Part shown: positions 1 through 19,095 of the stretch, one piece after another
Layout of the letters: the number at the start of each line of letters is the position of its first letter
How positions within the stretch are numbered: the first letter of the stretch is position 1
IMG/VR virus record: IMGVR_UViG_3300044911_000835
Location: 1-64,000 of that record
DNA length: 64,000 nt
Origin: a virus
Reading direction: 5' to 3' (one strand)
The notes under the pieces: generated by a model
What the model was told of the DNA's origin: nothing
The model's database searches: none
The model's input: only the letters and a program-made list of their open reading frames with translations
Made by a program: the position numbers and the translations under genes

Positions 1-36
1 ATACTTTACCTTGCGCCAACACCCACAAATCTCGGC

Positions 37-65: not shown

Positions 66-89
66 TGTTATTCAAATTTGGAGAATCTT

Positions 90-1457: not shown

Positions 1458-1629
1458 TAAAATTTGTAAAATTGATTCAATTTCTGGCATATGTATTGGT
1501 TGCCTACGATATAAGAAGGAGATTGAAACATGGTCAACTCTAACTGATGAACAAAGATGGTGGGTAATGGATGATATTGCCTTAGTTAGGTCTCACGTAT
1601 ATAAATTTGATCTTGCTAAACCTGCCTAA
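1435..1629 (+). CDS. DUF1289-like small cysteine protein
   Basis: A product of 62-64 residues with the DUF1289 pattern: SPCNKICKID, GICIGCLR and a Trp-rich W-x-x-L-x-x-E-Q-R segment. The four Cys could bind metal; the function of the family is unknown. It starts inside the end of the previous gene (two in-frame ATGs at 1435 and 1441), so it is translationally coupled. Confidence 0.6.
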   Translation: MIMISPCNKICKIDSISGICIGCLRYKKEIETWSTLTDEQRWWVMDDIALVRSHVYKFDLAKPA

Positions 1630-1641
1630 CTACTCTATAAT
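1613..1641 (+). promoter_or_regulatory. Sigma70-type promoter
   Basis: TTGCTA (1613-1618), 17 bp, TATAAT (1636-1641), followed by ATTATTTCT and a TTTC/GAAA leader hairpin before the gene at 1671. Confidence 0.75.
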
Positions 1642-1670
1642 ATTATTTCTTCAATCGAAAAGGAAACAAA

Positions 1671-1856
1671 ATGAACGCAAAGAAAGCTAAAGCCCTTCGT
1701 AAAATTGCTAAAAGTATGGTATCTTCAGCAGCTACACCCGTAATCAAATTTTTTGTAGAAAAGCAAGAAGATGGTTCTGTTAAAGATACTCTAGTGCCAA
1801 TGCCTATGAGTTGGCCTATTGGTACTTTCCGTCAACTCTATCAATCACTAAAATGA
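1671..1856 (+). CDS. Hypothetical protein
   Basis: 61 residues, basic N-terminus (KKAKALRKIAK). Not recognised. First gene after the promoter at 1613-1641; AAGGAAAC precedes ATG. The last codons overlap the next start (ATGA). Confidence 0.55.
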   Translation: MNAKKAKALRKIAKSMVSSAATPVIKFFVEKQEDGSVKDTLVPMPMSWPIGTFRQLYQSLK

Positions 1857-2047
1857 TCTACTCTAAAGACTTCCTGCTTCAAGCCTACGCTTATCGTTTC
1901 GCTGAGCTAGGTGATGAAACTTACAGCTTGCTATATGAGCAAGCCAATAACCATTATGATAAGGTAGGTAAGGATGTCTTTAGGGCACACGCCAGTCTAG
2001 ATGCTGACGCTTTGAGAGTCTTCAAAGAAGAGCTTAAAAAATATTAA
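1853..2047 (+). CDS. Hypothetical protein
   Basis: 64 residues, predicted helical. The start is placed at ATG 1853, overlapping the preceding TGA (ATGA), rather than upstream at 1811. Not recognised. Confidence 0.5.
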   Translation: MIYSKDFLLQAYAYRFAELGDETYSLLYEQANNHYDKVGKDVFRAHASLDADALRVFKEELKKY

Positions 2048-2048
2048 G

Positions 2049-2077
2049 TTGAATTTATTATCTCATGGTCGTATAAT
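2049..2077 (+). promoter_or_regulatory. Sigma70-type promoter for a near-leaderless mRNA
   Basis: TTGAAT (2049-2054), 17 bp, TATAAT (2072-2077). The expected start point is only about 3 nt before ATG 2087. Confidence 0.65.
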
Positions 2078-2086
2078 ATTAGTTCG

Positions 2087-2203
2087 ATGATTGATAATGA
2101 AGACGAAATATCAGAAGAAGATTTACTAGAGTTCTTTGATGAAGAAAACTTTGAAGAACCAGATTTAAGTGATTTCGTAATATACGAAATTCCAAATGAA
2201 TAA
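2087..2203 (+). CDS. Acidic 38-residue protein, likely leaderless
   Basis: Encodes a very acidic peptide (MIDNEDEISEEDLLEFF...). It lies between a strong promoter and tRNA-Thr, and there is no room for a Shine-Dalgarno sequence, so translation would be leaderless. Not recognised; DNA-mimic-like acidity is only a guess. Confidence 0.45.
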   Translation: MIDNEDEISEEDLLEFFDEENFEEPDLSDFVIYEIPNE

Positions 2204-2204
2204 T

Positions 2205-2279
2205 GCCTCCTTAGCTCAGCGGTAGAGCTACTCTTTTGTAAGGAGTGGGTCGTGCGTTCAAATCGTACAGGGGGCACCA
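2205..2279 (+). tRNA. tRNA-Thr(TGT)
   Basis: 7-bp acceptor, anticodon loop TTTGTAA, canonical D- and T-arms, encoded CCA. The final A is also the first base of the next gene's ATG. Confidence 0.95.
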
Positions 2280-2752
2280 TGAATTACCCATATCAACTAA
2301 GGTACTGTATGCAACAAATTAATCGTAACCGATTAGCAAACTGTGAGAATGAGTTTCAAGGCTCTTTTATGAGAGTATTGGCTGTTTGTTCAGCAGGTTT
2401 GCTTCGAAGCCCTACTATTGCACGAGTATTAATTCGTGATTTTGATAATGTTAATCCTAGGCCCGTAGGCACTTCTAGTGAATACGCTCTAGTACCTTTA
2501 GATATGGTACATTTAAAGTGGGCGCATCTTATTATTTGTGCCAATGATGAAGTAATGCGTTTTGTTACCGCTGCTCTAGAAGAATGTAAGCTGGAACGTA
2601 AGGTAGTACACCTCAATATTCCAGATATGTATAACTTTGCAGACCCCGAATTGGAGCGAATCATTCGTGATGAGCTAAATAATATTCGGTTTACAAATGA
2701 AAATGATCCGCGTGACTTCTATGTAGATGTTACATTGAGTCCACATCAATAA
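2279..2752 (+). CDS. Low-molecular-weight tyrosine phosphatase-like protein
   Basis: 157 residues. It contains the CX5R(S/T) phosphate-binding loop as VCSAGLLRSPT around residues 26-36, as in low-molecular-weight phosphatases and arsenate reductases; a late Asp that could act as general acid (PDMYNF or RDFY) is present. ATG 2279 overlaps the tRNA-Thr CCA, and the tRNA 3' strand (AGGGGG) would act as Shine-Dalgarno. A later in-frame ATG just before VLAVCSAG would give a more typical family N-terminus. It may alter host protein phosphorylation or dephosphorylate small molecules. Confidence 0.65.
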   Translation: MNYPYQLRYCMQQINRNRLANCENEFQGSFMRVLAVCSAGLLRSPTIARVLIRDFDNVNPRPVGTSSEYALVPLDMVHLKWAHLIICANDEVMRFVTAALEECKLERKVVHLNIPDMYNFADPELERIIRDELNNIRFTNENDPRDFYVDVTLSPHQ

Positions 2753-2753
2753 T

Positions 2754-2828
2754 TCCATCTAACGCACCGGGCGTGCGGCCGGACTGTTAATCCGTGTGAG
2801 TTAGGTTCAAGTCCTAAAGATGGAGCCA
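2754..2828 (+). tRNA. tRNA-Asn(GTT)
   Basis: Acceptor TCCATCT/AGATGGA, loop CTGTTAA, discriminator G, encoded CCA. Begins one base after the preceding stop codon. Confidence 0.95.
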
Positions 2829-2841
2829 ACAAAATTCAGGC

Positions 2842-2870
2842 TTGATTGAACAGCTTAAACCCTGTAAAAT
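2842..2870 (+). promoter_or_regulatory. Sigma70-type promoter
   Basis: TTGATT (2842-2847), 17 bp, TAAAAT (2865-2870), then the TTTTC...GAAAA leader hairpin. Confidence 0.75.
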
Positions 2871-2899
2871 ATCTTTTCTGAAATCGAAAAAGAACTTCC

Positions 2900-3142
2900 A
2901 TGAAATACTTTAAAATTCGCTCTGAATCAGATCATTGGTGTGGTTGCTGGAATGAGATATATGTTCCCGCTGAGCGCGAAGAAGACTTGGAACAGCTCAT
3001 TTCTTACAATGAAGAATATGTTCGTTATGAACTAATTGACACTCCTGATGAAGAAGATGAGGAGTGGTTTGAAGAATATGACTCAGTTTCTTCTGAAGTT
3101 GAAGAAGTAGACGAAGAAGAATACTTACGTAATAAAGAATAA
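2900..3142 (+). CDS. Acidic hypothetical protein
   Basis: 80 residues. The C-terminal half is extremely rich in Glu/Asp (EEDEEWFEEYD...), and the N-terminus holds a CGC motif. Own promoter upstream. Not recognised. Confidence 0.55.
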   Translation: MKYFKIRSESDHWCGCWNEIYVPAEREEDLEQLISYNEEYVRYELIDTPDEEDEEWFEEYDSVSSEVEEVDEEEYLRNKE

Positions 3143-3143
3143 A

Positions 3144-3216
3144 GCGGGTAAGCTCATGGAGAGTCGCCGGCCTTCCAAGCCGTGTAGATGGGATTCGATC
3201 TCCCATACCCGCTCCA
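3144..3216 (+). tRNA. tRNA-Gly(TCC)
   Basis: Acceptor GCGGGTA/TACCCGC, loop CTTCCAA, encoded CCA. Confidence 0.95.
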
Positions 3217-3288
3217 ATTATTGCTCCACGCGAAAGCCTGAGCGAATAAGCGTTCCCAGATCGAATAACTGGGTATAAGGAATCTAGT

Positions 3289-3477
3289 ATGGAATTTGAT
3301 GTAGCTCTAACTAAAAAAGCCATAGATTGGCTAGCAGTACTAACTGCCCTAGTCTTACTGGGGTATATGGGTATGAGTAGCTACGCTCTTATTCTTGATA
3401 AAATAGATTATGCTGCCTATGTCGGTGCCATTGGCCCCATCGTAGGGATGTTAGTAGGTTTCTGGATTAGAAAGTAG
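3289..3477 (+). CDS. Small membrane protein, two transmembrane segments
   Basis: 62 residues with hydrophobic stretches around residues 14-33 and 42-58 and a short charged tail. Size and topology would fit a small holin-like or superinfection-exclusion protein, but nothing identifies it. Its stop is 3 nt from the structured RNA at 3481. Confidence 0.5.
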   Translation: MEFDVALTKKAIDWLAVLTALVLLGYMGMSSYALILDKIDYAAYVGAIGPIVGMLVGFWIRK

Positions 3478-3480
3478 TTT

Positions 3481-3613
3481 TCTAAAGTTAGATGACCACA
3501 CCCTAACAGGGTAAGGATAACGCTCTGACCTTGCATACAATGACGACACTAGAACTAAATTGAACTTGTTGCAAGCATTGTTCAAGCTCTTGTTCTAGGC
3601 ATCTAACTTTAGA
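3481..3613 (+). ncRNA. Structured RNA closed by a 14-bp terminal stem
   Basis: Perfect inverted repeat TCTAAAGTTAGATG (3481-3494) / CATCTAACTTTAGA (3600-3613). Inside are a hairpin ACCCT/AGGGT and a nested long hairpin with CTAGAAC/GTTCTAG (3549/3592) and TTGAAC/GTTCAA (3560/3580). No ORF fits. A long basal stem with a branched head suits a Y-RNA-like RNA, but no T-arm is visible. Confidence 0.5.
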
Positions 3614-3622
3614 AATTTGAAC

Positions 3623-3651
3623 TTGTTTTGATAGCTTAAACACTGTAAAAT
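3623..3651 (+). promoter_or_regulatory. Sigma70-type promoter
   Basis: TTGTTT (3623-3628), 17 bp, TAAAAT (3646-3651), followed by the standard leader. Confidence 0.75.
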
Positions 3652-3681
3652 ATCTTTTCTGAAATCGAAAAAGGAACTGAG

Positions 3682-3756
3682 ATGCACGATCACAAATACT
3701 GGGAACTTGTTAATGCTGGTTTGCTGCGTGAAGCTGAACTCTGGGCCAATCGCTAA
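3682..3756 (+). CDS. 24-residue micropeptide
   Basis: MHDHKYWELVNAGLLREAEL plus four residues. It has its own promoter and an AAGGA ribosome site, which argues for real translation. Its stop is immediately followed by the tRNA-like RNA at 3758. Function unknown; it may be a leader peptide. Confidence 0.4.
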   Translation: MHDHKYWELVNAGLLREAELWANR

Positions 3757-3757
3757 T

Positions 3758-3838
3758 AAATTCTGAATCATCTATAGTGGAACAAGACCGAGTCAGTTAA
3801 CGGCACGGAAGGTAGGTTCGAATCCTACTTCAGAATTT
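3758..3838 (+). ncRNA. Degenerate tRNA-like RNA with 10-bp terminal stem
   Basis: Perfect stem AAATTCTGAA/TTCAGAATTT closes an 81-nt element with a canonical T-arm (GTAGG TTCGAAT CCTAC) directly joined to the 3' strand. The anticodon arm is degenerate (CCG, a 10-nt loop holding CAGTTAA, CGG) and no CCA is encoded. It could be a tRNA pseudogene or a tRNA mimic. Confidence 0.55.
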
Positions 3839-3843
3839 TGAAC

Positions 3844-3872
3844 TTGTTTGATGTTGTAAAACGCTGTATAAT
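3844..3872 (+). promoter_or_regulatory. Sigma70-type promoter
   Basis: TTGTTT (3844-3849), 17 bp, TATAAT (3867-3872). Confidence 0.75.
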
Positions 3873-3903
3873 ATCTTTTCTAACTTGATGAAGGAAGAAC
3901 AAA

Positions 3904-4029
3904 ATGTTTGGCGAATTCACTGTTCCTGCTTACGCACACGATGCTGTTTGGTACGATATGGTTGATCGTGGCTATATTGAAGTTCCTACCGAGTTTGTTG
4001 ATAAAGAACTTGAAGTGTTTGACGAGTAA
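3904..4029 (+). CDS. 41-residue hypothetical protein
   Basis: MFGEFTVPAYAHDAVWYDMV... ending in an acidic tail. Preceded by its own promoter and AAGGAAGAAC. Not recognised. It is the last ORF before the ~770-nt non-coding tract. Confidence 0.5.
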   Translation: MFGEFTVPAYAHDAVWYDMVDRGYIEVPTEFVDKELEVFDE

Positions 4030-4105
4030 TTGTTTTACTGTTACACTTTTTGGTGACAAAGTGCGGATTGCTCACGAAACGAGCATTATTTAGAAATGTC
4101 TACAG

Positions 4106-4188
4106 CATTAATAGTTGCGTACTATCCTCTGGGGCACTAACAGTATGGAAACACTGTTAGGCACAAGGTAGGCTAAATACTATTAATG
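4106..4188 (+). ncRNA. Rod-like structured RNA
   Basis: Basal stem CATTAATAGT/ACTATTAATG (10 bp), middle helix CTATC/GGTAG, and a perfect apical hairpin CTAACAGT...ACTGTTAG. Three stacked helices separated by internal loops. Confidence 0.5.
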
Positions 4189-4461
4189 TAGTGAAAGTGC
4201 GAGAATGAAGATGGTAAGTCGTTTCCTAATCCCGTGTACATCTAAAGGGCACGTTACTAGTAGATATTTCTAAATAGGTTGTTACCTTAATTGCTTCGGC
4301 ATCTTAAATTAACAATAATATCAGAACTGGTAAATCTGATAGCCTATCAACCCACTGAAGAGCTGATGAAAGTTCAGCGAAACAGTCGTATCACAGCTAA
4401 TCTTGATATAAAATAAAATAATCAGAAGATTGTAGCTATATGACTGTATGGATAGTGTTGC

Positions 4462-4621
4462 GATTATAACAGCTACTTCTTATATCATGCTAAAGAAGTG
4501 CTTAGTAGTTGAAATGAGCACAAATGTTGTAATCAGCCAACAGATCAAGTGTTGGTACTTTCAGTGAAGATTGTACTAGAGAAACTATAATTTCTTTAGA
4601 TTGCTGATCGCGTCTGTTATA
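4462..4621 (+). ncRNA. Structured RNA A, with alternative basal stems
   Basis: TATAACAG (4465-4472) can pair with CTGTTATA (4614-4621), closing 157 nt. The overlapping GATTATAACA (4462-4471) can instead pair with TGTTGTAATC (4525-4534). Its 5' and 3' ends are similar in sequence to the RNA at 5384-5446, so the two are related copies. Confidence 0.5.
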
Positions 4622-4640
4622 GACTTTATCTCACTATCCT

Positions 4641-4801
4641 TTTTAAGTAAAGCACAGCTTAATAAACTAGCCTAGTTGATCACTAAGCGAATAGGTTTAA
4701 TTGCGTAACTGCCTAGGGAGTGGACTACCTTGGCAACACTTATACGAAGGAAATTGGTTGCTCCACGGCCTTTTCTAAAGTATAAGGGGCTTTACTTAAA
4801 A
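4641..4801 (+). ncRNA. 161-nt structured RNA abutting tRNA-fMet
   Basis: Perfect 13-bp terminal stem TTTTAAGTAAAGC/GCTTTACTTAAAA. It ends 1 nt before the tRNA at 4803. Internal helices include CTTATAC/GTATAAG and GCTTA/TAAGC. RNase P cleavage of the tRNA would create its 3' end. Confidence 0.55.
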
Positions 4802-4802
4802 T

Positions 4803-4875
4803 TGCGGCTTCAGATAGTCTGACTACGGGCTCATAACCCATTAGGGAGGGAGAGCGTTACTCCCGGCCGCATCCA
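4803..4875 (+). tRNA. tRNA-Met(CAT), initiator-like
   Basis: Loop CTCATAA sits on an anticodon stem with the GGG/CCC run typical of initiator tRNA, and the 1-72 pair is a weak T-A. The discriminator is T; CCA is encoded. Identity as fMet rather than elongator or Ile2 is inferred. Confidence 0.85.
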
Positions 4876-4908
4876 GATTTATTGTAGTACCACCACCGGA
4901 GACTTAAA

Positions 4909-5139
4909 TTGAAGTTTAAAACAAAACCTGTAGGTAAGTTTGTGTATGGCGTTGCAGCTTTTAACGGATTGGTCACCCAATATTGGGGTGATAGTTATAA
5001 AGATGCAGAGGATGCGTTTTACAAAAGCCATACAGCTACCCATCTTTATAAGATGGTAGGTTCAGTAAAAGAAGTAATTAAGGAAAATCAACGTCGTATG
5101 CGTCAACCAGGAGCAATTGCTCTAGCATTCGGCAAGTAA
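4909..5139 (+). CDS. Hypothetical protein, TTG start
   Basis: 76 residues, basic, rich in Lys/Tyr. TTG start supported by GGAGAC 5-10 nt upstream; no in-frame ATG fits. Not recognised. Lies between tRNA-fMet and tRNA-Ala. Confidence 0.55.
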   Translation: MKFKTKPVGKFVYGVAAFNGLVTQYWGDSYKDAEDAFYKSHTATHLYKMVGSVKEVIKENQRRMRQPGAIALAFGK

Positions 5140-5146
5140 ACAATTT

Positions 5147-5220
5147 GGGGCTTTAGTTTAATGGGAGAACCACTGGTTTGCAACCAGTTAATAACAGTTC
5201 GATTCTGTTAAGCTCCACCA
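5147..5220 (+). tRNA. tRNA-Ala(TGC)
   Basis: Acceptor GGGGCTT/AAGCTCC, loop TTTGCAA, encoded CCA. Followed after 2 nt by the permuted tRNA-like RNA. Confidence 0.95.
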
Positions 5221-5222
5221 AA

Positions 5223-5362
5223 TAATATGTTGCGTAGAAAAGACTTACTTCCACTTCTAATGGGGTTGTCACAGGTTCGAGTCCTGTATAAGGGACGGAG
5301 TCTCTTATTAGCTCAGTTGGTAGAGCACCTAAAATTCGTTTTTTCGACTTTTTCTCATATTA
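5223..5362 (+). ncRNA. Y-RNA (YrlA-like): circularly permuted tRNA on a long basal stem
   Basis: Order along the strand: TAATATG (5223) and AGAAAAG (5236) of the basal stem; anticodon-like CCACTTCTAATGGGG; T-arm ACAGG TTCGAGT CCTGT (5271-5287); acceptor 3' strand ATAAGGG plus A (5288-5295); linker CGGAGT; acceptor 5' strand CTCTTAT (5302-5308); TA; D-arm GCTC AGTTGGTA GAGC (5311-5326); CC; then CTTTTTCT (5348) and CATATTA (5356) of the basal stem. The acceptor halves pair over all 7 bp. Both tRNA halves are canonical but in reversed order, and the acceptor is closed by a 6-nt loop. This is the architecture described for bacterial YrlA RNAs, and a Ro60 gene starts 185 nt downstream. Confidence 0.7.
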
Positions 5363-5383
5363 ACAAAATTCAGCAGTTGCGTA

Positions 5384-5446
5384 TATAACAGTTACTTCCT
5401 CACCATCTAACGAGGGCCGCTTTGAGGGCGTCCCGTTTCTGTTATA
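5384..5446 (+). ncRNA. Structured RNA B, related to 4462-4621
   Basis: TATAACAG/CTGTTATA closes 63 nt. Flanks match RNA A: GTTGCG before the stem, TACTTC after the 5' strand, and GACTTT-TCTC after the 3' strand. Located just upstream of the Ro60 gene. Confidence 0.5.
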
Positions 5447-5485
5447 GACTTTTTCTCTGCTTCCACTTAATCCGCTGCGCTAATT

Positions 5486-5519
5486 CTAGTTACTTCATTT
5501 ATCGGAAATAAAACACTAG
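5486..5519 (+). promoter_or_regulatory. 5' UTR hairpin of the Ro60 gene
   Basis: ATTCTAGT and ACTAGAAT form a perfect 8-bp stem with a smaller internal TTTA/TAAA hairpin, ending about 25 nt before ATG 5547. The ribosome site CGGAG is outside it. A role in regulating Ro60 translation is inference; coordinates are approximate. Confidence 0.4.
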
Positions 5520-5546
5520 AATAACCTATTTCTCGGAGCTATACAA

Positions 5547-12297: not shown

Positions 12298-12416
12298 TAT
12301 AAGTGCTTATATATTGAAGTGCACTTCGGATATATAATCTGAGCTAGGGAATCTTAGTACATGCGTGACTAGCCAACCAGACTTAGGGTGCTGGGTGAAG
12401 TAACTAAGAACTTATA
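12298..12416 (+). ncRNA. Structured RNA with 12-bp terminal stem
   Basis: TATAAGTGCTTA/TAAGAACTTATA (one mismatch) closes 119 nt. The head has TTATATAT/ATATATAA capped by GAAG/CTTC, GCTAG/CTAGC, and CCAG/CTGG hairpins. Starts 3 nt after tRNA-Leu. Confidence 0.5.
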
Positions 12417-12442
12417 TACCAATTGACTTAAAAGGAAATAAA

Positions 12443-12769
12443 ATGACTAAGTATCACCCTGATTCTTGGGTAATTCTAAAGATTACCAATGAAGGTGTTA
12501 CCTACTACAAAGTCTTAGCTGGTTGGTACGGTGGTTATACTAACGGAGATTCGTGGCAGATTAATTCCGGTATTACTAGTGTAGATAAAGTAGATGGTAT
12601 ATATGAGTTTTATGGATATTCTGGTTCTGTTTATTTCTGTAATGAGAAAACAGAACGATTAACAGGACTTACGGCTAGTATACTTGAATCATACCAGAAA
12701 GACATGGAAGGTATTGGTGCTTCTATGGAAGTTGTACCTGTTTCAGAAGTAATGTTTTATTTTCAGTAA
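12443..12769 (+). CDS. Hypothetical protein
   Basis: 108 residues, rich in Tyr/Gly/Ser, predicted beta-rich (W-V-I-L-K-I...YYKVLAGWYGG). Phage-type small protein of unknown function. AAAGGAAAT precedes the ATG; tRNA-Glu starts 8 nt after the stop. Confidence 0.6.
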   Translation: MTKYHPDSWVILKITNEGVTYYKVLAGWYGGYTNGDSWQINSGITSVDKVDGIYEFYGYSGSVYFCNEKTERLTGLTASILESYQKDMEGIGASMEVVPVSEVMFYFQ

Positions 12770-12777
12770 AGATTAAA

Positions 12778-12852
12778 ACTCCGTTCGACTTCAGGTGAGG
12801 TCACCACCCTTTCAAGGTGGCTAGAGGGGATCGTTACCCCTACGGAGTACCA
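12778..12852 (+). tRNA. tRNA-Glu(TTC)
   Basis: Acceptor ACTCCGT/ACGGAGT, loop CTTTCAA, T-loop ATCGTTA, encoded CCA. Confidence 0.93.
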
Positions 12853-12885
12853 AATTCGTTACTTAAGCCTAGTGCTTAAGTTGTA

Positions 12886-12982
12886 AGTCTAAATTGAAGA
12901 GGTTGAGACAGGGGTTCGATTCCCCTCACCTACAAAGACGATGTGGGTGTCTTGGGTTCGATCAGCGTTGGATATCTAGACT
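12886..12982 (+). ncRNA. Permuted tRNA-like RNA (Y-RNA-like)
   Basis: Basal stem AGTCTA/TAGACT. T-arm AGGGG TTCGATT CCCCT (12910-12926) runs directly into acceptor 3' strand CACCTAC (12927-12933), A, linker AAGACGAT, and acceptor 5' strand GTGGGTG (12943-12949); the two strands pair over 7 bp. The following D-arm region is not canonical. A hairpin ACTTAAGC/GCTTAAGT lies just upstream (about 12860-12880). Confidence 0.6.
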
Positions 12983-13159
12983 GAGAATCGGCAATGTAGA
13001 AGCCGTAATGTAAGTGCTCTGCAACAGCAGGTCAATTCCTTTGTTGTTAAAGCTTACGAAGAAACAAAGCATTTTAAATGCAAACGACGAAGTATACGCT
13101 ATCGCTGCCTAAGCTTTAGCTGAGGTTTTGAGACTGTTCCTTATTACCCAATACAGTCT
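12983..13159 (+). ncRNA. Non-coding structured linker
   Basis: No gene. Helices: GTAAG/CTTAC enclosing CAACA/TGTTG with an AGG TCAATT CCT T-arm-like tip (about 13010-13060), GCATTT/AAATGC near 13070, and GAGACTGT/ACAGTCTC (13130-13137/13153-13160). Confidence 0.4.
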
Positions 13160-13267
13160 CTATTAGTTAGTACTTTGTGACGAGTTAGTACACAATGAGT
13201 ACGTAGGCATACGTACTACTTGGATGTACTCGGTAGTCAGCGGCCGCAGCAAAGTATTAACTAATAG
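13160..13267 (+). ncRNA. Structured RNA with 18-bp terminal stem and cloverleaf-like head
   Basis: CTATTAGTTAGTACTTTG (13160-13177) pairs with 13250-13267 with one wobble. The head has TTGTG/CACAA, GTACGTA/TACGTAC and further short helices. It shares end bases with the hairpin before it (13160) and the RNA after it (13266). Confidence 0.55.
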
Positions 13268-13340
13268 TATACTAATGTAGCCCGCGACCTGTGCACAGGT
13301 GTAGGAACAGCGGTTGGCAGCTAAAACCAGTTAGTATACT
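13266..13340 (+). ncRNA. Structured RNA with 10-bp terminal stem
   Basis: AGTATACTAA/TTAGTATACT closes 75 nt containing CCGC/GCGG around ACCTG/CAGGT, and GGTT/AACC. Continuous with the preceding RNA; ends 22 nt before the next gene. Confidence 0.5.
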
Positions 13341-13362
13341 TTCTAATTTTTACTAGGATAAC

Positions 13363-13827
13363 ATGAAAACACTTAATATAAAAGAAATAACAGAATACTT
13401 AGCTAATGAACCGTTAGAGTCTAATGTTTATATTGGTGTAGATTCTGAGCGTTATAAAGATAAAGGTAAGTGGTTTGCTGATTATACTGTTGCGGTAGTT
13501 ATTCACCGTAATGGTAACAATGGTTGTAAAGTATTCGGCGGAATTGATACTGCTCAAGATTTTGATAGCAAATCAAATAAACCTATGATGCGTATGATGA
13601 ATGAAGTTTATCGTGCATCAGAAACTTATCTAGCTCTAGCAGAACTTTTAGTAGATCGTCATGTTGAAATTCACTTAGATATTAATCCTAGCGAATTGCA
13701 TGGTTCTAACTGTGCTATGCAACAAGCTATTGGGTATATTAAAGGTGTATGTGGTCATACACCTAAACTTAAGCCGGAAGCATTTGCGGCGTCTTATGCT
13801 GCTGATAGATTGAAGGAATATATTTAA
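13363..13827 (+). CDS. RNase H-like protein (YkuK/DUF458 type)
   Basis: 154 residues. The pattern fits the RNase H-like YkuK family: a first strand with an Asp (VYIGVDSERYKDKGKWFADY), a later HLDINPSE acidic site around residues 106-112, and a conserved GYIKGVCGHTPKLKPEAFAAS C-terminus. Catalytic activity on RNA of RNA:DNA hybrids is untested in the family; it could take part in processing the surrounding RNAs. ATG follows AGGATAAC. Confidence 0.6.
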   Translation: MKTLNIKEITEYLANEPLESNVYIGVDSERYKDKGKWFADYTVAVVIHRNGNNGCKVFGGIDTAQDFDSKSNKPMMRMMNEVYRASETYLALAELLVDRHVEIHLDINPSELHGSNCAMQQAIGYIKGVCGHTPKLKPEAFAASYAADRLKEYI

Positions 13828-13833
13828 ATTAAT

Positions 13834-13909
13834 TGCTCTATAGTGAAGTTGGTTATCACACCAGATTTTGAATCTGGTATCTTTGGTTCGAATCCAAATA
13901 GGGCTGCCA
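13834..13909 (+). tRNA. tRNA-Gln(TTG)
   Basis: Loop TTTTGAA, discriminator G, encoded CCA. The first pair is T1-T72 (unpaired), consistent with the weak 1-72 pair of tRNA-Gln. Confidence 0.9.
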
Positions 13910-13915
13910 AATAAT

Positions 13916-13989
13916 GTCTCACTAGTGTAATGGAAGCACGGCGATCTCCAAAATCGCAAGCCGAGGGTCGGTACCTTGGTGGGATGCCA
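13916..13989 (+). tRNA. tRNA-Trp(CCA)
   Basis: Acceptor GTCTCAC/GTGGGAT, stem-loop GCGAT CTCCAAA ATCGC, discriminator G, encoded CCA. The T-loop GTCGGTA is atypical. Confidence 0.88.
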
Positions 13990-13997
13990 GTATTAAT

Positions 13998-14071
13998 AAG
14001 GTGAAAAGGGTAGCTCCCCTGATAGTGCTCAATCCACTATCTAGCCTAAGAGTTCGATTGAGGAATAAAAG
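13998..14071 (+). promoter_or_regulatory. Conserved HNH-leader RNA motif, copy 1
   Basis: AGGT (13999-14002)/GCCT (14044-14047) closes two hairpins: AGGG/CCCT and GATAGTG CTCAATC CACTATC (14021-14041). The second hairpin's loop CTCAATC is complementary to GATTGAG (14056-14062), which contains the HNH ribosome site GAGG. This pseudoknot would block translation. A copy with covarying stems is at 18338-18411. Confidence 0.6.
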
Positions 14072-14647
14072 GTGTATAGAGAAATAAAAGAAGAAGAATT
14101 GAAGTTAGATAAACAGAGAGGTTATTTATACTTCATTGATAAAGATCACCCTCTTAAAACTGGAAATGCCTCCTACGTTTTTCTACATAGGCACATGGCC
14201 TCTATAAAAGCAGGCTACTGGCTATCTAGTAAGGAGCATGTTCACCATATAGATGAGAATAAATTAAATAATTCTCCAGAAAATCTACACATATGTTCTG
14301 CTTCTGAACACGGTAAGTTACATAGTGCGCATTTATGTATAGAAAAACTCTGTAAACAGTGTGGAATACTTTTTAAGCAAAAAGAGTCTACACAACTATT
14401 TTGTTCTACTGAGTGTAGTAGCAAGTATAGAGTTTTACTAGATGGATTAACTAAGGAAGAATTAGAACACTTATTATGGACTACTAATTATTCTGAACTA
14501 GGAAAACAATTTAAATGTAGTGATAATGGTATAAGAAAGTGGGCGAAAAGACTTAAATGTACAGTACCTCCTGCATACTTCCATAGTAAGGGCTACTCTG
14601 TAGAAAAGAAATTATCAATGTATTTAGAAATTAAAGAAAAAGGATAA
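14072..14647 (+). CDS. HNH homing endonuclease
   Basis: 191 residues, GTG start. Residues ~54-78 hold the HNH_3-type core (EHVHHIDENKLNNSPENLHI); residues ~95-115 hold a four-Cys zinc site (CKQC ... CSTEC). The C-terminus carries a helix-turn-helix (YSELGKQFKCSDNGIRKWAK), as in free-standing phage homing endonucleases. Its translation is probably repressed by the upstream RNA motif. It sits next to tRNA-Trp, a usual kind of insertion neighbourhood. Confidence 0.85.
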   Translation: MYREIKEEELKLDKQRGYLYFIDKDHPLKTGNASYVFLHRHMASIKAGYWLSSKEHVHHIDENKLNNSPENLHICSASEHGKLHSAHLCIEKLCKQCGILFKQKESTQLFCSTECSSKYRVLLDGLTKEELEHLLWTTNYSELGKQFKCSDNGIRKWAKRLKCTVPPAYFHSKGYSVEKKLSMYLEIKEKG

Positions 14648-14651
14648 ACGA

Positions 14652-14918
14652 ATGACTAAAGCTGTATATTGTTCACAAATGGTAGATTATGAAGGTATTG
14701 TAGAGGAAGATATTGGCTTTTTTGTAGAGGGTAATCGTTTCGAGTTTAAAGTAGACGTATATGAAGATATGATTACTTTCCGAGACTGTTTAGGCCGTTT
14801 CGTACCAGTTGACATTACTCAAATTGATCAAGTTATTGATGCTTTAGTTACTGCTAGGTCTTTGATGCTAGTGCCTATGGCTCCAGATACTTATGTTGAA
14901 TCTGATTTGGGTTGCTGA
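14652..14918 (+). CDS. Hypothetical protein
   Basis: 88 residues, acidic, likely beta-rich. Not recognised. Starts 5 nt after the HNH stop. Confidence 0.55.
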   Translation: MTKAVYCSQMVDYEGIVEEDIGFFVEGNRFEFKVDVYEDMITFRDCLGRFVPVDITQIDQVIDALVTARSLMLVPMAPDTYVESDLGC

Positions 14919-15114
14919 ACAGTTAGAATCTGAACCACCCCAAATACTTGAAGAATTTCAAGGATTTGAGGTAATAGTAGAGCTTAATGACCCATCCCAG
15001 TATTTTTCTAAGTACCAAATTTGGGCAGAGATAGAAAAGCTGCTAAAGCAAGCCCCTATTAAAGATAGATTAAATACAGTAGAGTACGTGAAAAACAAGT
15101 TGAAGAATTTTTAA
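14893..15114 (+). CDS. Hypothetical protein
   Basis: 73 residues, acidic with a helical C-terminus. ATG 14893 overlaps the previous gene by 26 nt; no clear ribosome site, so a later start is possible. Not recognised. Confidence 0.5.
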   Translation: MLNLIWVAEQLESEPPQILEEFQGFEVIVELNDPSQYFSKYQIWAEIEKLLKQAPIKDRLNTVEYVKNKLKNF

Positions 15115-15115
15115 C

Positions 15116-15144
15116 TTGTTTTTTTAGTTTAAAGCCTCTATAAT
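15116..15144 (+). promoter_or_regulatory. Sigma70-type promoter
   Basis: TTGTTT (15116-15121), 17 bp, TATAAT (15139-15144). Confidence 0.8.
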
Positions 15145-15174
15145 ATTATTTCTGAGTTTGAAAAAGGATTTGAA

Positions 15175-15369
15175 ATGACTTTTTGGAAAGTTCCTGGTCA
15201 ACTATTAATTAATGTATTATGTGAGATAATTCAAGCAAAGTTACTAGGCTTTGAAAAGCTCGCAATTGAATTTAGGCCTGAATTAGAGAACCAGTTGTTT
15301 TCTAGGGGATTTAAAGTTTCTACTATTAAACTTCCTAATAATTATTACACTGTGGTGGATCTAAAATGA
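15175..15369 (+). CDS. Hypothetical protein
   Basis: 64 residues, not recognised. AAGGATTTGAA precedes the ATG; ATGA overlap with the next gene. Confidence 0.55.
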   Translation: MTFWKVPGQLLINVLCEIIQAKLLGFEKLAIEFRPELENQLFSRGFKVSTIKLPNNYYTVVDLK

Positions 15370-15575
15370 AAGTAGGTACTTGGGTTCAGTTTGAGAATGA
15401 AAATAAACCTATAGGTTATATCATTGGTAAAAAAGAGCATAAGTATCAGCTTAGACCAACATCTAAAGAATTGATTAGAACTAACCTACATGAACTAGAG
15501 TTTGATGTAGATGGTTATGCTACTGAGTATGAACGCAAGAATAAGATCAATCGTATCATAGAATTTCAAGCTTGA
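15366..15575 (+). CDS. Hypothetical protein
   Basis: 69 residues beginning MKVGTWVQFENENKPIGYII, resembling small SH3-like phage proteins. Function unknown. Confidence 0.55.
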   Translation: MKVGTWVQFENENKPIGYIIGKKEHKYQLRPTSKELIRTNLHELEFDVDGYATEYERKNKINRIIEFQA

Positions 15576-15600
15576 TACGCAGTTCAATATTCTGTATAAT
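15572..15600 (+). promoter_or_regulatory. Sigma70-type promoter driving non-coding RNA
   Basis: TTGATA (15572-15577), 17 bp, TATAAT (15595-15600). The next gene is 1 kb away; the transcript begins with the tRNA-like RNA at 15626. Confidence 0.8.
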
Positions 15601-15625
15601 ATTGTTTATGAAATCGAGAAAGGTT

Positions 15626-15781
15626 TCATAAAGCACACTAGAAGGGTACTTAACCTACTAATCGACGGATTAGTAGCCTATGTGAGAGAACCCTTTAATA
15701 GGGTTAGGGTCACTATCAAACCGGCCGGCATGATACAAATAGGTGGTTAAACAGGTTCGATTCCTGTAGTGTGCTTTATGA
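15626..15781 (+). ncRNA. tRNA-like RNA with 15-bp extended acceptor
   Basis: TCATAAAGCACACTA (15626-15640) pairs perfectly with 15767-15781. A canonical T-arm ACAGG TTCGATT CCTGT joins the 3' strand as in a tRNA (acceptor GCACACT/AGTGTGC). In place of D and anticodon arms are CTACTAATC/GATTAGTAG and AACCCT/AGGGTT hairpins; there is no anticodon-like loop and no CCA. It can also pair with the leader (TTTATGAAA/TTTCATAAA). Confidence 0.6.
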
Positions 15782-15835
15782 GACTTTTGCGTACTGCTCT
15801 ATGATGCGGAGTACCAGTTGTCACAATAGACCGGA

Positions 15836-15930
15836 GGTTTAGCGTGCTCAAGGTAATATCCCAACATACATTAGTATTACTAATGATTACGTGAAAGTTT
15901 TATATAACGTCCAGGCTAGGACGCTAAACC
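15836..15930 (+). ncRNA. Structured RNA with 10-bp terminal stem
   Basis: GGTTTAGCGT/ACGCTAAACC closes 95 nt containing CATTAGT/ACTAATG and GTCC/GGAC hairpins. Confidence 0.45.
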
Positions 15931-16432
15931 AAGCGGACTGTTTATAGAGGTCGTCCGTAAACTACTATACATCATTTTATCCTGATGTTAAACGGATAGG
16001 GTACATAGGCGTTGGAAGCGAAATGTACCTAATAAGGTAAGGAAAGTAAACGGAGGATGGGAGCTAGTGAAACGTACTGGAACCTTATAGCAGATACCCC
16101 ACCGGCCTTAGAAATTGATAGTGAACTTAAGATAGCTATCGCCCTTTGTCAGAGTAGGTTAAAAACTGAAATCTTACTTAAATGAGGGCCAGTAAGTGAT
16201 AGTTATTTTGCCCATAACTGGAACCTGGCTTAGGTAGAATGTCGCAAATTCTACACTGTAGGAAGTTCGTAATGAAAGTTGTTAGTACCAAGAACTATAA
16301 ATATCGTTGAACTATCAGTCTTATAGTACTAGTAGACTTAAAACAACTAGGAAATTGGCTTCCCGAGTATGATAGTAAACTGCTCCGACCTTACTAGAAG
16401 TCGTTAAACTAGTACCCAGTATTCTAGAGTGC

Positions 16433-16502
16433 TGTGGTTAGGGCAGTTAGGTAACTAACAGGTTAAGACTCCGGTGTGCCCGGACGAGCTGCTCTAACCA
16501 CA
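16433..16502 (+). ncRNA. Structured RNA with 14-bp terminal stem
   Basis: TGTGGTTAGGGCAG pairs with CTGCTCTAACCACA (one wobble). The head has two hairpins, GTTAG GTAA CTAAC and TCCGG TGTGC CCGGA. Confidence 0.5.
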
Positions 16503-16609
16503 ACGCTCCCGTATATCAATTGGTATTGATGCTTTCTGATTCCACTATATGGATAATGTCTTTGACAAGTTAGTATCAATTCCACAACATTCTAATAAAA
16601 GGATTTAAT

Positions 16610-16807
16610 ATGCGTAAAAAACTATTAAGGTCTTGTGGATGTAGAACTTGTATGCGGGGCAGGCGTACCGCATATGGCCATGTAAGGTTACATCAAGCGG
16701 AAAAGCAGCTAAGACAACAATCTAGAATTAATATTGATAAAGCTATAAAAGGTAATGACCTAGATTTAATTGACATTATCGAAGTTTCTACGGATTACAC
16801 AGACTAA
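16610..16807 (+). CDS. Small basic Cys-containing protein
   Basis: 65 residues. Its N-terminus is basic with three Cys (SCGCRTCMRGRR), possibly nucleic-acid binding; the C-terminus is acidic. AAGGATTTA precedes ATG. Its stop overlaps the next ATG (TAATG). Not recognised. Confidence 0.55.
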   Translation: MRKKLLRSCGCRTCMRGRRTAYGHVRLHQAEKQLRQQSRINIDKAIKGNDLDLIDIIEVSTDYTD

Positions 16808-17415
16808 TGCAAATTATTTCACCTTTTAAAGATTACTATGATGTAGGTATGCAATATGGTTTCGACCCCAAATTGCAATGGATTAGGCGTACTTCTGACA
16901 TTGAGGAGTCTAGTCGCTGGCATCATTCTGAATCAATTATTCTACATTTTTGTGGTAAGACTTATAGAGGTATAGTTGTAAAGTCCGCTTCCTACTACAT
17001 TAATAGTATGGAAGTAATTTGGGATAATGAACACTACGATAAATATTGTACAGAAAATAAGGTAAAACCCTTAGAGATTAGTTGGCTAGATAAGTTTTGG
17101 ATAACTACTAAAGTTAGACCTAAATCCAAGATCATACAGTTAGGACTAATTGGTGAGTCTGACATTTTAAATGATAAATATAGTTCTCCGGTAATTTTAC
17201 AAACTAATAAAGGACTAGAGATTAATCCTTCCTTGAAGTTTATTCAGTTTTATAAAGTCTATGACCCAGTAACTACATATCAAAAAATTAGTGAATACTT
17301 TGGTAACAAGTTTTTTAATGAACCTAAAATGGTTCCAATTTCAGATAAAGATAGGATTAAACAACATGGATTTACTAAAGAAAGTTTCCGTATGGCTAAG
17401 TCCAGCAATAAATAG
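16807..17415 (+). CDS. Hypothetical protein
   Basis: 202 residues, not recognised. No obvious signal or membrane segment; aromatic-rich, probably a soluble alpha/beta protein. Confidence 0.6.
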   Translation: MQIISPFKDYYDVGMQYGFDPKLQWIRRTSDIEESSRWHHSESIILHFCGKTYRGIVVKSASYYINSMEVIWDNEHYDKYCTENKVKPLEISWLDKFWITTKVRPKSKIIQLGLIGESDILNDKYSSPVILQTNKGLEINPSLKFIQFYKVYDPVTTYQKISEYFGNKFFNEPKMVPISDKDRIKQHGFTKESFRMAKSSNK

Positions 17416-17464
17416 CTTTCTAATTATGTACTGGTTTAGCCTAGAGTGGCTTAAAGATAAATTT

Positions 17465-17539
17465 GCTTCGTTAACTCAGCGGTAGAGTAACTCCTTTACA
17501 CGGAGAAGGTCGGCGGTTCAATCCCGTCACGAAGTACCA
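17465..17539 (+). tRNA. tRNA-Val(TAC)
   Basis: Acceptor GCTTCGT/ACGAAGT, loop TTTACAC, encoded CCA. Confidence 0.93.
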
Positions 17540-17556
17540 ACTAATTAAGGATTTGA

Positions 17557-17808
17557 ATGGAATTTGATATTGAGATTAAGAAAACTACCTATGATAGGGT
17601 TCGCTTAAATGACGAAGATATTAAGAAGGTAGTTTTACACTATATTAGTCGTAAGTATAATATCCGTAAAGATGATTGGGTTGCAGAAGGTGACCTTACA
17701 CGTGAGGTTGAATACCATGGATCTCACAGTTGGTTTGAGCAAGAAGTTATTAGAAAAGTAACTGATTTCGATGTTGCATTACTAACACTTCTTAGAGAAT
17801 TAAAATAA
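17557..17808 (+). CDS. Hypothetical protein
   Basis: 83 residues (EIKKTTYDRVRLNDEDIKKV...), mixed charge. Not recognised; between tRNA-Val and tRNA-Asp. Confidence 0.55.
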   Translation: MEFDIEIKKTTYDRVRLNDEDIKKVVLHYISRKYNIRKDDWVAEGDLTREVEYHGSHSWFEQEVIRKVTDFDVALLTLLRELK

Positions 17809-17812
17809 TATT

Positions 17813-17886
17813 GGCTCTATCGTATATAGGTATTACCTCGGATTGTCTATCCGAAGAACACAGTTCGAATCTGTGTAGAGTCGCCA
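17813..17886 (+). tRNA. tRNA-Asp(GTC)
   Basis: Acceptor GGCTCTA/TAGAGTC, loop TTGTCTA, discriminator G, encoded CCA. Confidence 0.93.
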
Positions 17887-17894
17887 GGTTAAAT

Positions 17895-17970
17895 AGTAAC
17901 GAATGCAATTAGGTGAGCAGCTTGATTCATAATCAAGTGCTATTCGGTTCGAGGCCGAGCGTTACTACCA
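17895..17970 (+). tRNA. tRNA-Met(CAT), probably elongator
   Basis: Acceptor AGTAACG/CGTTACT, stem-loop CTTGA TTCATAA TCAAG, encoded CCA. Lacks the initiator GGG/CCC run. Confidence 0.88.
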
Positions 17971-17973
17971 AAT

Positions 17974-18035
17974 TAACTACTAGAGTTAAGCGCGTTAACT
18001 TAATAAGCAGCGGTCGGTAAGCTTTCTAGTAGTTA
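17974..18035 (+). ncRNA. Structured RNA with 11-bp terminal stem
   Basis: TAACTACTAGA/TCTAGTAGTTA closes 62 nt with an inner GTTAA GCGCG TTAAC hairpin. Starts 3 nt after tRNA-Met and abuts the next element without a gap. Confidence 0.55.
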
Positions 18036-18128
18036 CCACAAGTAGGCTTCACTTCCTTATCTGCTTCCAGCTGATTAGCTCGTACCTGGAAGTACGGGCG
18101 GGATAAGAGTAAGGAAGCCTACTTGTGG
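18036..18128 (+). ncRNA. Structured RNA with 15-bp terminal stem overlapping tRNA-His
   Basis: CCACAAGTAGGCTTC (18036-18050) pairs perfectly with 18114-18128. The helix continues imperfectly (CTTATC/GATAAG) to an apical CTTCCAG/CTGGAAG hairpin. Its last four bases, GTGG, are the first four of tRNA-His. Confidence 0.6.
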
Positions 18129-18200
18129 TCGTAACTTAACAGGCAAAGGCTCTGGCTGTGAACTAGAGAGATGCGGATTCGACTTCCGTCGATCACCCCA
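18125..18200 (+). tRNA. tRNA-His(GTG)
   Basis: Acceptor GTGGTCG/CGATCAC, stem-loop TCTGG CTGTGAA CTAGA, discriminator C, encoded CCA. The -1 position is T, whereas bacterial tRNA-His normally encodes G-1. Confidence 0.9.
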
Positions 18201-18257
18201 ATAATTTTCGGTCAGCGCCGAACCAACCAAACTGTCAAGATTAAATAAAGTCACGCA

Positions 18258-18334
18258 CGGCCGTTAGTTTAACTGGAAAGAACCTATGCATACGAAGCAT
18301 AGAAATGTACGTTCGAATCGTACACGGTCGGCCA
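18258..18334 (+). tRNA. tRNA-Arg(ACG)
   Basis: Acceptor CGGCCGT/ACGGTCG, stem-loop TATGC ATACGAA GCATA, discriminator G, encoded CCA. A34 would need deamination to inosine. Confidence 0.92.
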
Positions 18335-18337
18335 ATT

Positions 18338-18411
18338 AAGGCGAAAAGAGTCATTCTCCTGTTCCTTCCTCGGAACTAGCCTAAGTTTTAGCCCTTGAGG
18401 AGGGGTGTATT
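18338..18411 (+). promoter_or_regulatory. Conserved HNH-leader RNA motif, copy 2
   Basis: AGGC (18339-18342)/GCCT (18379-18382) closes GAG/CTC and GTTCC TTCCTC GGAAC hairpins. The loop TCCTC pairs with GAGGA of the HNH ribosome site at 18397-18401. It shares TAAGG-GAAAAG and TAGCCTAAG with copy 1, while the helices differ in sequence but keep pairing. Confidence 0.6.
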
Positions 18412-19095
18412 ATGAATGAAGAAATAATAGAAGAAATATATAATAAATTAGTTGAACGATTTGGTATTGGTGACGTGTTTTTACCTAAGTATGGAAAAAG
18501 AAAATCAGACTTAACCTGGAAACAGTTCATTAAAGCTGCTTTAGAACTAAAGTTAGAGGAACTCACTATTTATTGTGGATTTACGTTTAGTAAAGGCCTA
18601 AGTAGAGCTTTAAAAGAAAAATATCCTGGTATTATACAAGATAAAAATGGAGAATACTGGTTTCTATACCTATCTAAGTTTCTTAGTAAGAAAAGATGCT
18701 CACAATGTCTAGAAGTATTAGAATATAAAGAATTTAACTATAATTCATCAACAAAAGATGGATTTAGTTCTACTTGTAGACATTGCGACAAAGAATACAG
18801 AGACCTAAATAAAGAGCATATATTAGCACATAGTAAACAATATTACAGTAAGCATAAAAAAGAAATTAGTGCTAATAAAGCTAAACGTAGGGCTACAAAA
18901 CTACAAGCAACCCCAAATTGGGCAAACCTGATAGCCATAAAAGAAATTTATCGAACTTGCCCTGAAGGTTATCATGTAGATCACATAGTTCCCTTACAAA
19001 ACGACTTAGTATGTGGGCTTCATTGTGAATTTAATCTTCAACATCTATCTGCTAGCGAAAATTTAAGTAAAGGAAATAGATTTGAAGTAGATTAA
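18412..19095 (+). CDS. HNH endonuclease
   Basis: 227 residues. A central four-Cys zinc site (CSQCLEVL ... CRHC, ~98-125) is followed near 187-222 by an HNH core (HVDHIVPLQND ... NLQHLSASENLSKGNRF). The N-terminal ~90 residues are helical and may recognise DNA. It inserts beside tRNA-Arg and ends at a terminator, like a mobile gene. Probably a homing endonuclease; unrelated in sequence to the one at 14072 outside the core. Confidence 0.85.
   Translation: MNEEIIEEIYNKLVERFGIGDVFLPKYGKRKSDLTWKQFIKAALELKLEELTIYCGFTFSKGLSRALKEKYPGIIQDKNGEYWFLYLSKFLSKKRCSQCLEVLEYKEFNYNSSTKDGFSSTCRHCDKEYRDLNKEHILAHSKQYYSKHKKEISANKAKRRATKLQATPNWANLIAIKEIYRTCPEGYHVDHIVPLQNDLVCGLHCEFNLQHLSASENLSKGNRFEVD

What the first reader, a model, noticed from the sequence alone, without database searches (positions are those of the whole stretch)
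3481..18128. About a dozen RNAs closed by long terminal stems tile the gaps between tRNAs
Terminal stems of 7-19 bp, mostly perfect, close units at 3481, 4106, 4462, 4641, 5384, 7629, 9063, 12298, 13160, 13266, 15626, 15836, 16433, 17974 and 18036. Sizes are mostly 60-160 nt, none codes for protein and none is followed by a T tract. Such a density of long stems is not explained by tRNAs or terminators. They may be Y-RNA-like Ro60 clients, tRNA-cleavage decoys, or RNase III/RNase P processed regulators.
Basis: partly seen in the sequence, partly recalled or inferred. Interest (0 to 1): 0.85.

Follow-up and report, generated by a model that had tools for sequence, protein, structure and literature searches.

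The report
Phage tRNA array full of structured RNAs
A freshwater T5-like phage fills the gaps between its transfer-RNA genes with a mixed set of folded RNAs, including three Y RNAs beside the phage's own Ro60 gene, a tmRNA and a probable self-cutting hammerhead ribozyme; this extends the long-unexplained "stable RNAs" of phages T4 and T5 and gives several of them testable identities.

Summary
The observation largely holds. The tRNA region (1-18400) of this 77-kb T5-like virus record has 13 inverted repeats with arms of at least 11 bp, against 1.9 in shuffles. Eleven stem-closed non-tRNA units have folding z of -2.9 to -7.6. The unit at 12298 is not supported, and several units were missed.

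The units are a mixture.
- Three are Y RNAs beside a phage Ro60 gene (4450-4639, 5223-5362, 5372-5461). The same motif lies beside Ro60 in 30 of 56 viral loci and in eight of ten named phages; Rfam's YrlA model misses those scanned at its cutoff.
- 12880-13112 is a permuted tmRNA.
- 4340-4456 is a probable hammerhead whose predicted cut lies at the 5' end of a Y RNA.
- 3758 and 15626 are tRNA-like.
- The rest resemble T4/T5 "stable RNAs of unknown function" in placement and closing stem, without sequence homology.

In related phages such units form many Rfam-absent families. The 5' arm takes in the upstream tRNA's CCA in 22 of 99 units (0.45 expected), and the same modules also fill the tmRNA intervening segment.

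Decoy and RNase III/P roles remain untested.

The parts
3479..3615 (+). stem-closed RNA unit, 16-bp perfect terminal stem
   Evidence: z -6.2
3758..3838 (+). tRNA-like unit: T-arm next to a 9-10 bp closing stem, no normal tRNA call
4087..4276 (+). stem-closed unit (11 bp) containing the nested 10-bp stem 4106-4188
   Evidence: z -4.5
4340..4456 (+). probable hammerhead ribozyme, stem I open: CTGAAGA 4355-4361, stem II, GAAA 4379, 10-bp stem III, predicted cut 4448/4449
   Evidence: homologous pair of hammerheads in related phages (L083, L088)
4450..4639 (+). Y RNA C: P1 GGATAGTG/CACTATCC, P2 ATAACAG/CTGTTAT, motif CTACTTC
   Evidence: motif family
4641..4801 (+). stem-closed unit, 13-bp stem
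   Evidence: z -3.2
5223..5362 (+). Y RNA A, YrlA type with a permuted tRNA-like module (T-arm before D-arm)
   Evidence: Rfam RF02553 35.1 bits, E 1.8e-4, below gathering 69; homologues upstream of Ro60 in L091 and L094, E 6e-10 and 1e-8
5372..5461 (+). Y RNA B, plain (no tRNA-like module)
5547..7067 (+). Ro60 (TROVE + vWA) protein gene
   Evidence: Pfam TROVE 1.4e-29, vWA_Ro60 1.5e-7; PHROG 850
7629..7690 (+). stem-closed unit filling the gap between two tRNA-Arg genes
   Evidence: z -5.3
8174..8267 (+). tRNA-Pro with acceptor stem extended to a 17-bp helix, no encoded CCA
   Evidence: z -6.6
9062..9138 (+). stem-closed unit, 20-bp stem whose 5' arm contains the CCA of tRNA-Lys
   Evidence: (z -7.6)
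11961..12075 (+). tRNA-Tyr inside an extended terminal helix
   Evidence: z -6.2
   Evidence: z -7.3
12880..13112 (+). permuted tmRNA; tag reads ANDEVYAIAA; intervening segment only a few bases and no encoded CCA
   Evidence: Rfam RF04321 78 bits vs cutoff 47; tag read from the sequence
13160..13267 (+). stem-closed unit
   Evidence: z -6.0
13266..13340 (+). stem-closed unit of family F2, shared with two related phages
   Evidence: (E 0.018)
15626..15781 (+). tRNA-like stable RNA: 15-bp terminal stem with a T-arm beside it, layout like T5 RNA2
   Evidence: z -5.8
15836..15930 (+). stem-closed unit, 10-bp stem
   Evidence: z -2.9
16034..16116 (+). non-coding block conserved between tRNAs in L094 (74%); part of a larger non-coding stretch 15945-16430
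16433..16502 (+). stem-closed unit, 16-bp stem with G-U pairs
   Evidence: z -4.1
17974..18035 (+). stem-closed unit directly followed by CCA
   Evidence: z -1.3, weak
18035..18129 (+). stem-closed unit, 16-bp stem whose 3' arm overlaps the 5' end of tRNA-His, as RNAIII does in T5
   Evidence: z -7.3

Best explanation
The region is one co-directional array of tRNAs, small ORFs and independent structured RNAs, the T4/T5 'stable RNA' arrangement in a T5-like phage. Three units are Y RNAs that would bind the Ro60 protein encoded next to them. One of them (Y-C) probably gets its 5' end from a hammerhead ribozyme that cuts at 4448/4449; the hammerhead's stem I strand and the first stem of Y-C use the same bases. 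One unit is a permuted tmRNA and two are tRNA-like. The other units carry no known motif. Their long terminal stems most likely set and protect the ends of the RNA when the flanking tRNAs are cut out of the common transcript. Shown by computation: the stems, their excess over chance, the Y motif beside Ro60, the tmRNA, covarying terminal stems in related phages, and overlap of the stems with tRNA CCA ends. Inferred: that the RNAs accumulate, that Ro60 binds the Y RNAs, that the hammerhead cuts, and that the stems steer processing.
For: Stem excess and folding z. Ro60 gene. Y motif: 3 copies in the window, 3 each in Ro60-bearing L091 and L094, 1 in L085 beside a cut-off Ro60 gene; on the Ro60 strand in 30 of 56 viral Ro60 loci and 0 matches on the other strand; 2-5 copies beside Ro60 in eight of ten named phages. 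Y stem P2 pairs in 95% of cells vs 37-48% when slid. tmRNA. Hammerhead: 1 in window, 0 in 60 shuffles. Family F1: 21 members, 21 different 5' arms, each fully paired with its own 3' arm, 58% with others' arms. 5' arm overlaps the upstream tRNA CCA in 22 of 99 units vs 0.45 expected. T5 and T4 records list stable RNAs between their tRNAs. RNA-seq in Listeria phage CKA15 shows highly transcribed non-coding regions near its tRNA genes, upstream of an Rsr-like gene (PMC12282133).
Against: No transcript data for this phage. Y-A, Y-B and Y-C fold no better than shuffles, so they rest on motif, position and homology. YrlA scores 35.1 bits, under the Rfam cutoff of 69. The Y instances were picked partly by pairing, so that count leans towards pairing. 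The hammerhead descriptor finds no excess over 2.4 Mb (2 found, 1.3 expected) and Rfam does not report the window hammerhead. The F1 members exclude four ill-formed ones, and their arms were defined by pairing. Most window units have no homologue in the relatives. T5 stable RNAs share no sequence with them.
Confidence: 0.7

Rival explanations
1. The units are interchangeable RNA modules (cassettes) whose terminal stems join them to tRNA or tmRNA 3' ends; they act in controlling 3' maturation or in conflict with host nucleases, and the interior is exchanged by recombination.
For: Same interior families occur after tRNA CCA ends and as the intervening segment of permuted tmRNAs (F1, F6, F20); different interiors with similar arms sit before the same downstream gene (F1, F2, F6, F20, F21); CCA overlap; F1 pattern absent from the 84,980 bacterial and archaeal species genomes scanned.
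Against: Exchange inferred from few loci; no mobility gene tied to the modules; shared arms could be homology of the flanks; the window tmRNA itself has almost no intervening segment.
Confidence: 0.3
2. All units are Ro60-bound Y RNAs.
For: Ro60 gene in the middle of the array.
Against: The Y motif is in only three units; stem-closed units are just as frequent in relatives in which no Ro60 was found.
Confidence: 0.05
3. The stems are processing or termination signals only; the enclosed RNA has no function.
For: Stems abut tRNA ends; a family member elsewhere is followed by a T run (L132).
Against: Interiors are conserved, with an invariant core in F1 and a conserved Y motif.
Confidence: 0.15
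4. Decoys for host tRNA-cutting nucleases.
For: tRNA-like units in a tRNA array (3758, 15626).
Against: Most units have no tRNA-like part; no test was possible.
Confidence: 0.1

Closest known systems
T5 stable RNAs of unknown function (RNAI, RNAIII, RNA1, RNA2, RNA2H, RNA3, RNAIV, RNAX; GenBank AY543070)
   Same: Non-coding RNAs on the tRNA strand filling gaps between tRNAs; several closed by terminal stems; RNAIII stem overlaps the start of tRNA-His as the window unit 18035-18129 does; some are tRNA-like
   Different: No convincing sequence similarity to window or relatives (best E 0.13, a tRNA-like part); no Ro60, Y RNA or tmRNA among the features annotated there
T4 species 1 and 2 RNAs (rnaC, rnaD; AF158101)
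   Same: Small stable RNAs abutting tRNAs
   Different: Only two; not compared by sequence with the window
YrlA / bacterial Y RNAs (Rfam RF02553)
   Same: Next to Ro60; stem made by the two ends; permuted tRNA-like module in Y-A
   Different: Below the Rfam cutoff; conserved GNTACTTC motif; up to five copies per phage; Y-B is short and plain
Putative Y RNAs of Listeria phage CKA15 (PMC12282133)
   Same: Highly transcribed non-coding RNAs near tRNA genes, upstream of an Rsr-like gene
   Different: Gram-positive host; authors only propose Y RNAs; sequences not compared here
Hammerhead ribozyme
   Same: Conserved core and three stems
   Different: Long stem III insert, placed at the 5' end of a Y RNA; Rfam does not report it in the window
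Permuted tmRNA (Rfam RF04321)
   Same: Scores above cutoff, intact tag frame
   Different: No encoded CCA and a minimal intervening segment in the window; relatives carry stem-closed modules there
Theta ribozymes of gut phages (PMC10879173)
   Same: Ribozyme within a phage tRNA context
   Different: HDV-like fold that is proposed to trim tRNA 3' trailers; no HDV-like family matched here

Membership tests
Y RNA / YrlA | encoded next to a Ro60 gene | tested here: met
   Three units within 1.1 kb upstream of 5547-7067
Y RNA / YrlA | covariance model score at or above the Rfam gathering cutoff | tested here: not met
   35.1 vs 69 bits for Y-A; none for Y-B, Y-C
Y RNA / YrlA | 5' and 3' ends form a stem around a conserved internal loop | tested here: met
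Y RNA / YrlA | tRNA-like module | tested here: met
   Y-A only; absent from Y-B; not identified in Y-C
Y RNA / YrlA | binds Ro60 | not testable with these tools
   needs pull-down
T4/T5 stable RNAs | non-coding RNA between phage tRNAs, same strand | tested here: met
T4/T5 stable RNAs | sequence homology to T5 RNAs | tested here: not met
T4/T5 stable RNAs | accumulates as a discrete RNA | not testable with these tools
   needs RNA-seq or northern blots
Hammerhead ribozyme | CUGANGA...GAAA core with stems I-III and NUH cleavage site | tested here: met
Hammerhead ribozyme | excess of matches over chance | tested here: inconclusive
   3 vs 0.07 in the tRNA regions, but 2 vs 1.3 over 2.4 Mb
Hammerhead ribozyme | self-cleavage | not testable with these tools
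   needs in vitro assay
Permuted tmRNA | covariance model above cutoff and tag frame | tested here: met
   78 vs 47 bits; ANDEVYAIAA read
Permuted tmRNA | encoded 3' CCA of the acceptor piece | tested here: not met
   CACCTAC is followed by AAAGACGAT
Other curated RNA families (GOLLD, ROOL, HDV-like and others in Rfam 15) | match at gathering cutoff | tested here: not met

The most novel reading that the evidence does not exclude
Stem-closed RNAs of these phages are a pool of exchangeable RNA modules that plug into tRNA and tmRNA 3' ends through self-complementary arms that take in the CCA, and so control when those ends mature; in the window the pool also supplies Ro60 with Y RNAs, one of which is freed by a hammerhead.
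Probability: 0.25. Interest if true: 0.85.

Novelty: new variant of a known kind. Interest (0 to 1): 0.62.

Why it matters
T4 and T5 stable RNAs have been annotated without a function. Here several units of the same kind of array can be named (Y RNA, tmRNA, probable hammerhead, tRNA-like), and the rest fall into families that can be tested. A Y-RNA motif found beside Ro60 in many phages, and not reported by the Rfam model at its cutoff, gives a direct way to ask what phage Ro60 is for. The overlap of terminal stems with tRNA CCA ends, and the same modules inside the tmRNA intervening segment, suggest an unrecognised step in phage tRNA processing.

Tried and rejected
Scans with Ro60 alone and with the 302-1042 protein gave no close relative covering the array; near relatives' contigs end before it or start after it. 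Blast of window units against relatives found few homologues. Rfam at relaxed threshold gave only tRNA, tmRNA, YrlA and chance hits. F1 as a ribozyme maturing the CCA was rejected: the distance from CCA to the core varies from about 11 to 18 bases between members. The idea that all units are Y RNAs was rejected. F1 in bacterial genomes: none. Papers on T5 stable RNAs or T4 species 1 RNA were not found in the library. A mis-framed translation of the L094 Ro60 was redone.
Full report
What the window is. It is 64 kb of a 77,048-base virus record. DNA polymerase is about 45% identical to those of T5-like phages, with DNA ligase, ribonucleotide reductase and tail proteins of siphovirus type. Ribonucleotide reductase found 80 related loci in IMG/VR; 19 of 30 of the records examined carry tRNA clusters, which I fetched. 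The tmRNA matches the betaproteobacterial type, so a betaproteobacterial host is plausible (inference).

Checking the observation. Inverted repeats with arms of at least 11 bp: 13 in 1-18400, 1.9 expected from dinucleotide shuffles; at least 14 bp: 7 vs 0.1. The remaining 45.6 kb has 12 and 2. Folding z-scores: 9062 -7.6, 18035 -7.3, 12091 -7.3, 8174 -6.6, 11961 -6.2, 3479 -6.2, 13160 -6.0, 15626 -5.8, 7629 -5.3, 4087 -4.5, 16433 -4.1, 4641 -3.2, 15836 -2.9. Weak: 12298 -0.8, 17974 -1.3, 13266 -1.05, and the three Y RNAs (-1.3, -1.2, -0.6). Two strong cases (8174, 11961) are tRNAs with extended acceptor stems.

Y RNAs and Ro60. The gene 5547-7067 is a Ro60 protein, TROVE plus vWA. Just upstream, 5238-5347 matches Rfam YrlA at 35.1 bits, E 1.8e-4, below the curated cutoff of 69. 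It has homologues directly upstream of Ro60 in L091 and L094 (E 6e-10 and 1e-8). A motif, CAGNTACTTC or GACTTACTTC, is shared by three window units (4470, 5242, 5389), by three units each around Ro60 in L091 and L094, and by one in L085, where a cut-off Ro60 gene lies at the contig edge. In 56 viral Ro60 loci it is on the Ro60 strand in 30 and never on the other strand. In ten named phages it occurs in 2-5 copies beside Ro60 in eight (Xanthomonas Olaya, Brevundimonas Gurke, Microcystis Mvi-JY20, CcrColossus, crAss001, Rhizobium TM21B, Streptomyces Kradal, Gordonia Neville; the motif there was searched in a slightly looser form); Vibrio phiKT1024 and Thermus phiLo show no convincing copy. Rfam reports no YrlA at its cutoff in the 20 viral loci or ten named-phage loci scanned. 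The common architecture is an outer stem, an internal loop, a 7-8 bp stem, GTTACTTC, a variable interior often holding a permuted tRNA-like module, then the partner strands. The inner stem pairs in 95% of cells against 37-48% when slid; part of this comes from how instances were picked. Window coordinates: Y-C 4450-4639, Y-A 5223-5362, Y-B 5372-5461.

Hammerhead. 4355-4382 reads CTGAAGA, stem II, GAAA, followed by a 10-bp stem III; the predicted cut is 4448/4449. The downstream product would start one base before the outer stem of Y-C, and hammerhead stem I uses the same 5' strand. Two related phages (L083, L088) hold a homologous pair of hammerheads with compensatory changes in stem II. The descriptor gives 3 hits in the tRNA regions against 0.07 expected, and 0 in 60 window shuffles. 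Over 2.4 Mb, both strands, it gives only the two relatives' hits against 1.3 expected, so the count alone is not proof. Confidence in this item is about 0.65.

tmRNA and tRNA-like units. 12880-13112 is a permuted tmRNA (78 bits, cutoff 47) with tag ANDEVYAIAA. It lacks an encoded CCA and has an intervening segment of only a few bases. 15626-15781 and 3758-3838 have a T-arm beside a terminal stem, the layout of T5 RNA2.

Remaining units. Family F2 (13266-13340) has relatives in L099/L140 and L141: an inner stem is CCGC/GCGG in the window, CCGC/GTGG in L141 and CCAC/GTGG in L099, read by hand because the automatic alignment misplaced the 3' side. 16034-16116 is conserved in L094. The others have no detected homologue.

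The same phenomenon in relatives. Related tRNA clusters hold many stem-closed units in at least a dozen families absent from Rfam at gathering. Family F1 has 25 non-identical members from 30 stretches and the relatives' loci. In 21 well-formed members all 5' arms differ, yet each pairs fully with its own 3' arm and 58% with others' arms; 13 of 14 terminal-stem pairs show changes on both sides. Arms were defined by pairing and four ill-formed members were left out, so this is favourable to pairing. Stems of 81 relative units, seeded on Watson-Crick arms and then read over their first 20 positions, show 80 G-U against 39 A-C positions, which favours RNA on this strand; the window alone (16 vs 12) does not decide. 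The 5' arm overlaps the 3' end of the upstream tRNA in 22 of 99 units, 0.45 expected. The same interiors occur as intervening segments of permuted tmRNAs (F1, F6, F20), and different interiors precede the same downstream gene. The F1 pattern is absent from 84,980 prokaryote species genomes.

What is known. T5's record lists eight stable RNAs of unknown or putative function between its tRNAs and T4's lists two. T5 RNAIII overlaps the start of tRNA-His through a long stem, like the window unit 18035-18129. Sequence homology was tested and not found. In Listeria phage CKA15, highly transcribed non-coding regions lie near the tRNA genes, upstream of an Rsr-like gene, and the authors propose Y RNAs (PMC12282133). 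Hence 'works like' T5 stable RNAs and Y RNAs is well supported; strict membership in Rfam YrlA or in the T5 RNA families is not.

Verdict. A real and rich feature, mixed in nature; new variant of a known kind, interest 0.62.

Noticed in passing
13990-14071 and 18335-18411: Two similar short elements (AAGGYGAAAAG...CTAGCCTAAG...GGTGTAT), each directly after a tRNA and before an ORF (14072 HNH endonuclease; 18412 unknown). Folding is not better than shuffles.
   Followed up: partly
10634-10718, 3143-3216, 4803-4872: tRNA-like genes missed by ARAGORN; by eye Ser(UGA), Gly(UCC) and Met. Only the first is also seen by Rfam, under the tRNA-Sec model.
   Followed up: partly
2833, 3609, 7778, 15572 and others in 1-18500: Repeated block with a TATAAT-like element and CTTTTCTGAAATCGAAAAAGGA before small genes: a likely recurring phage promoter and leader.
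   Followed up: no
L083 (about 1145-1250 of the reverse complement) and L088 (about 1900-2015 of the reverse complement): Homologous pair of hammerhead ribozymes in the RNA arrays of related phages.
   Followed up: partly
L110-L139: Family F1, a conserved RNA core (GCCACTTAATRNATAWATGCGGAG ... CCTTCCGCGGGT) in at least 25 phage loci, absent from the bacterial genomes held.
   Followed up: yes
5547-7067: The window's Ro60 is only about 30% identical to the Ro60 of its relatives L091 and L094, although the Y RNAs beside it are of the same type; it may have a different origin.
   Followed up: no
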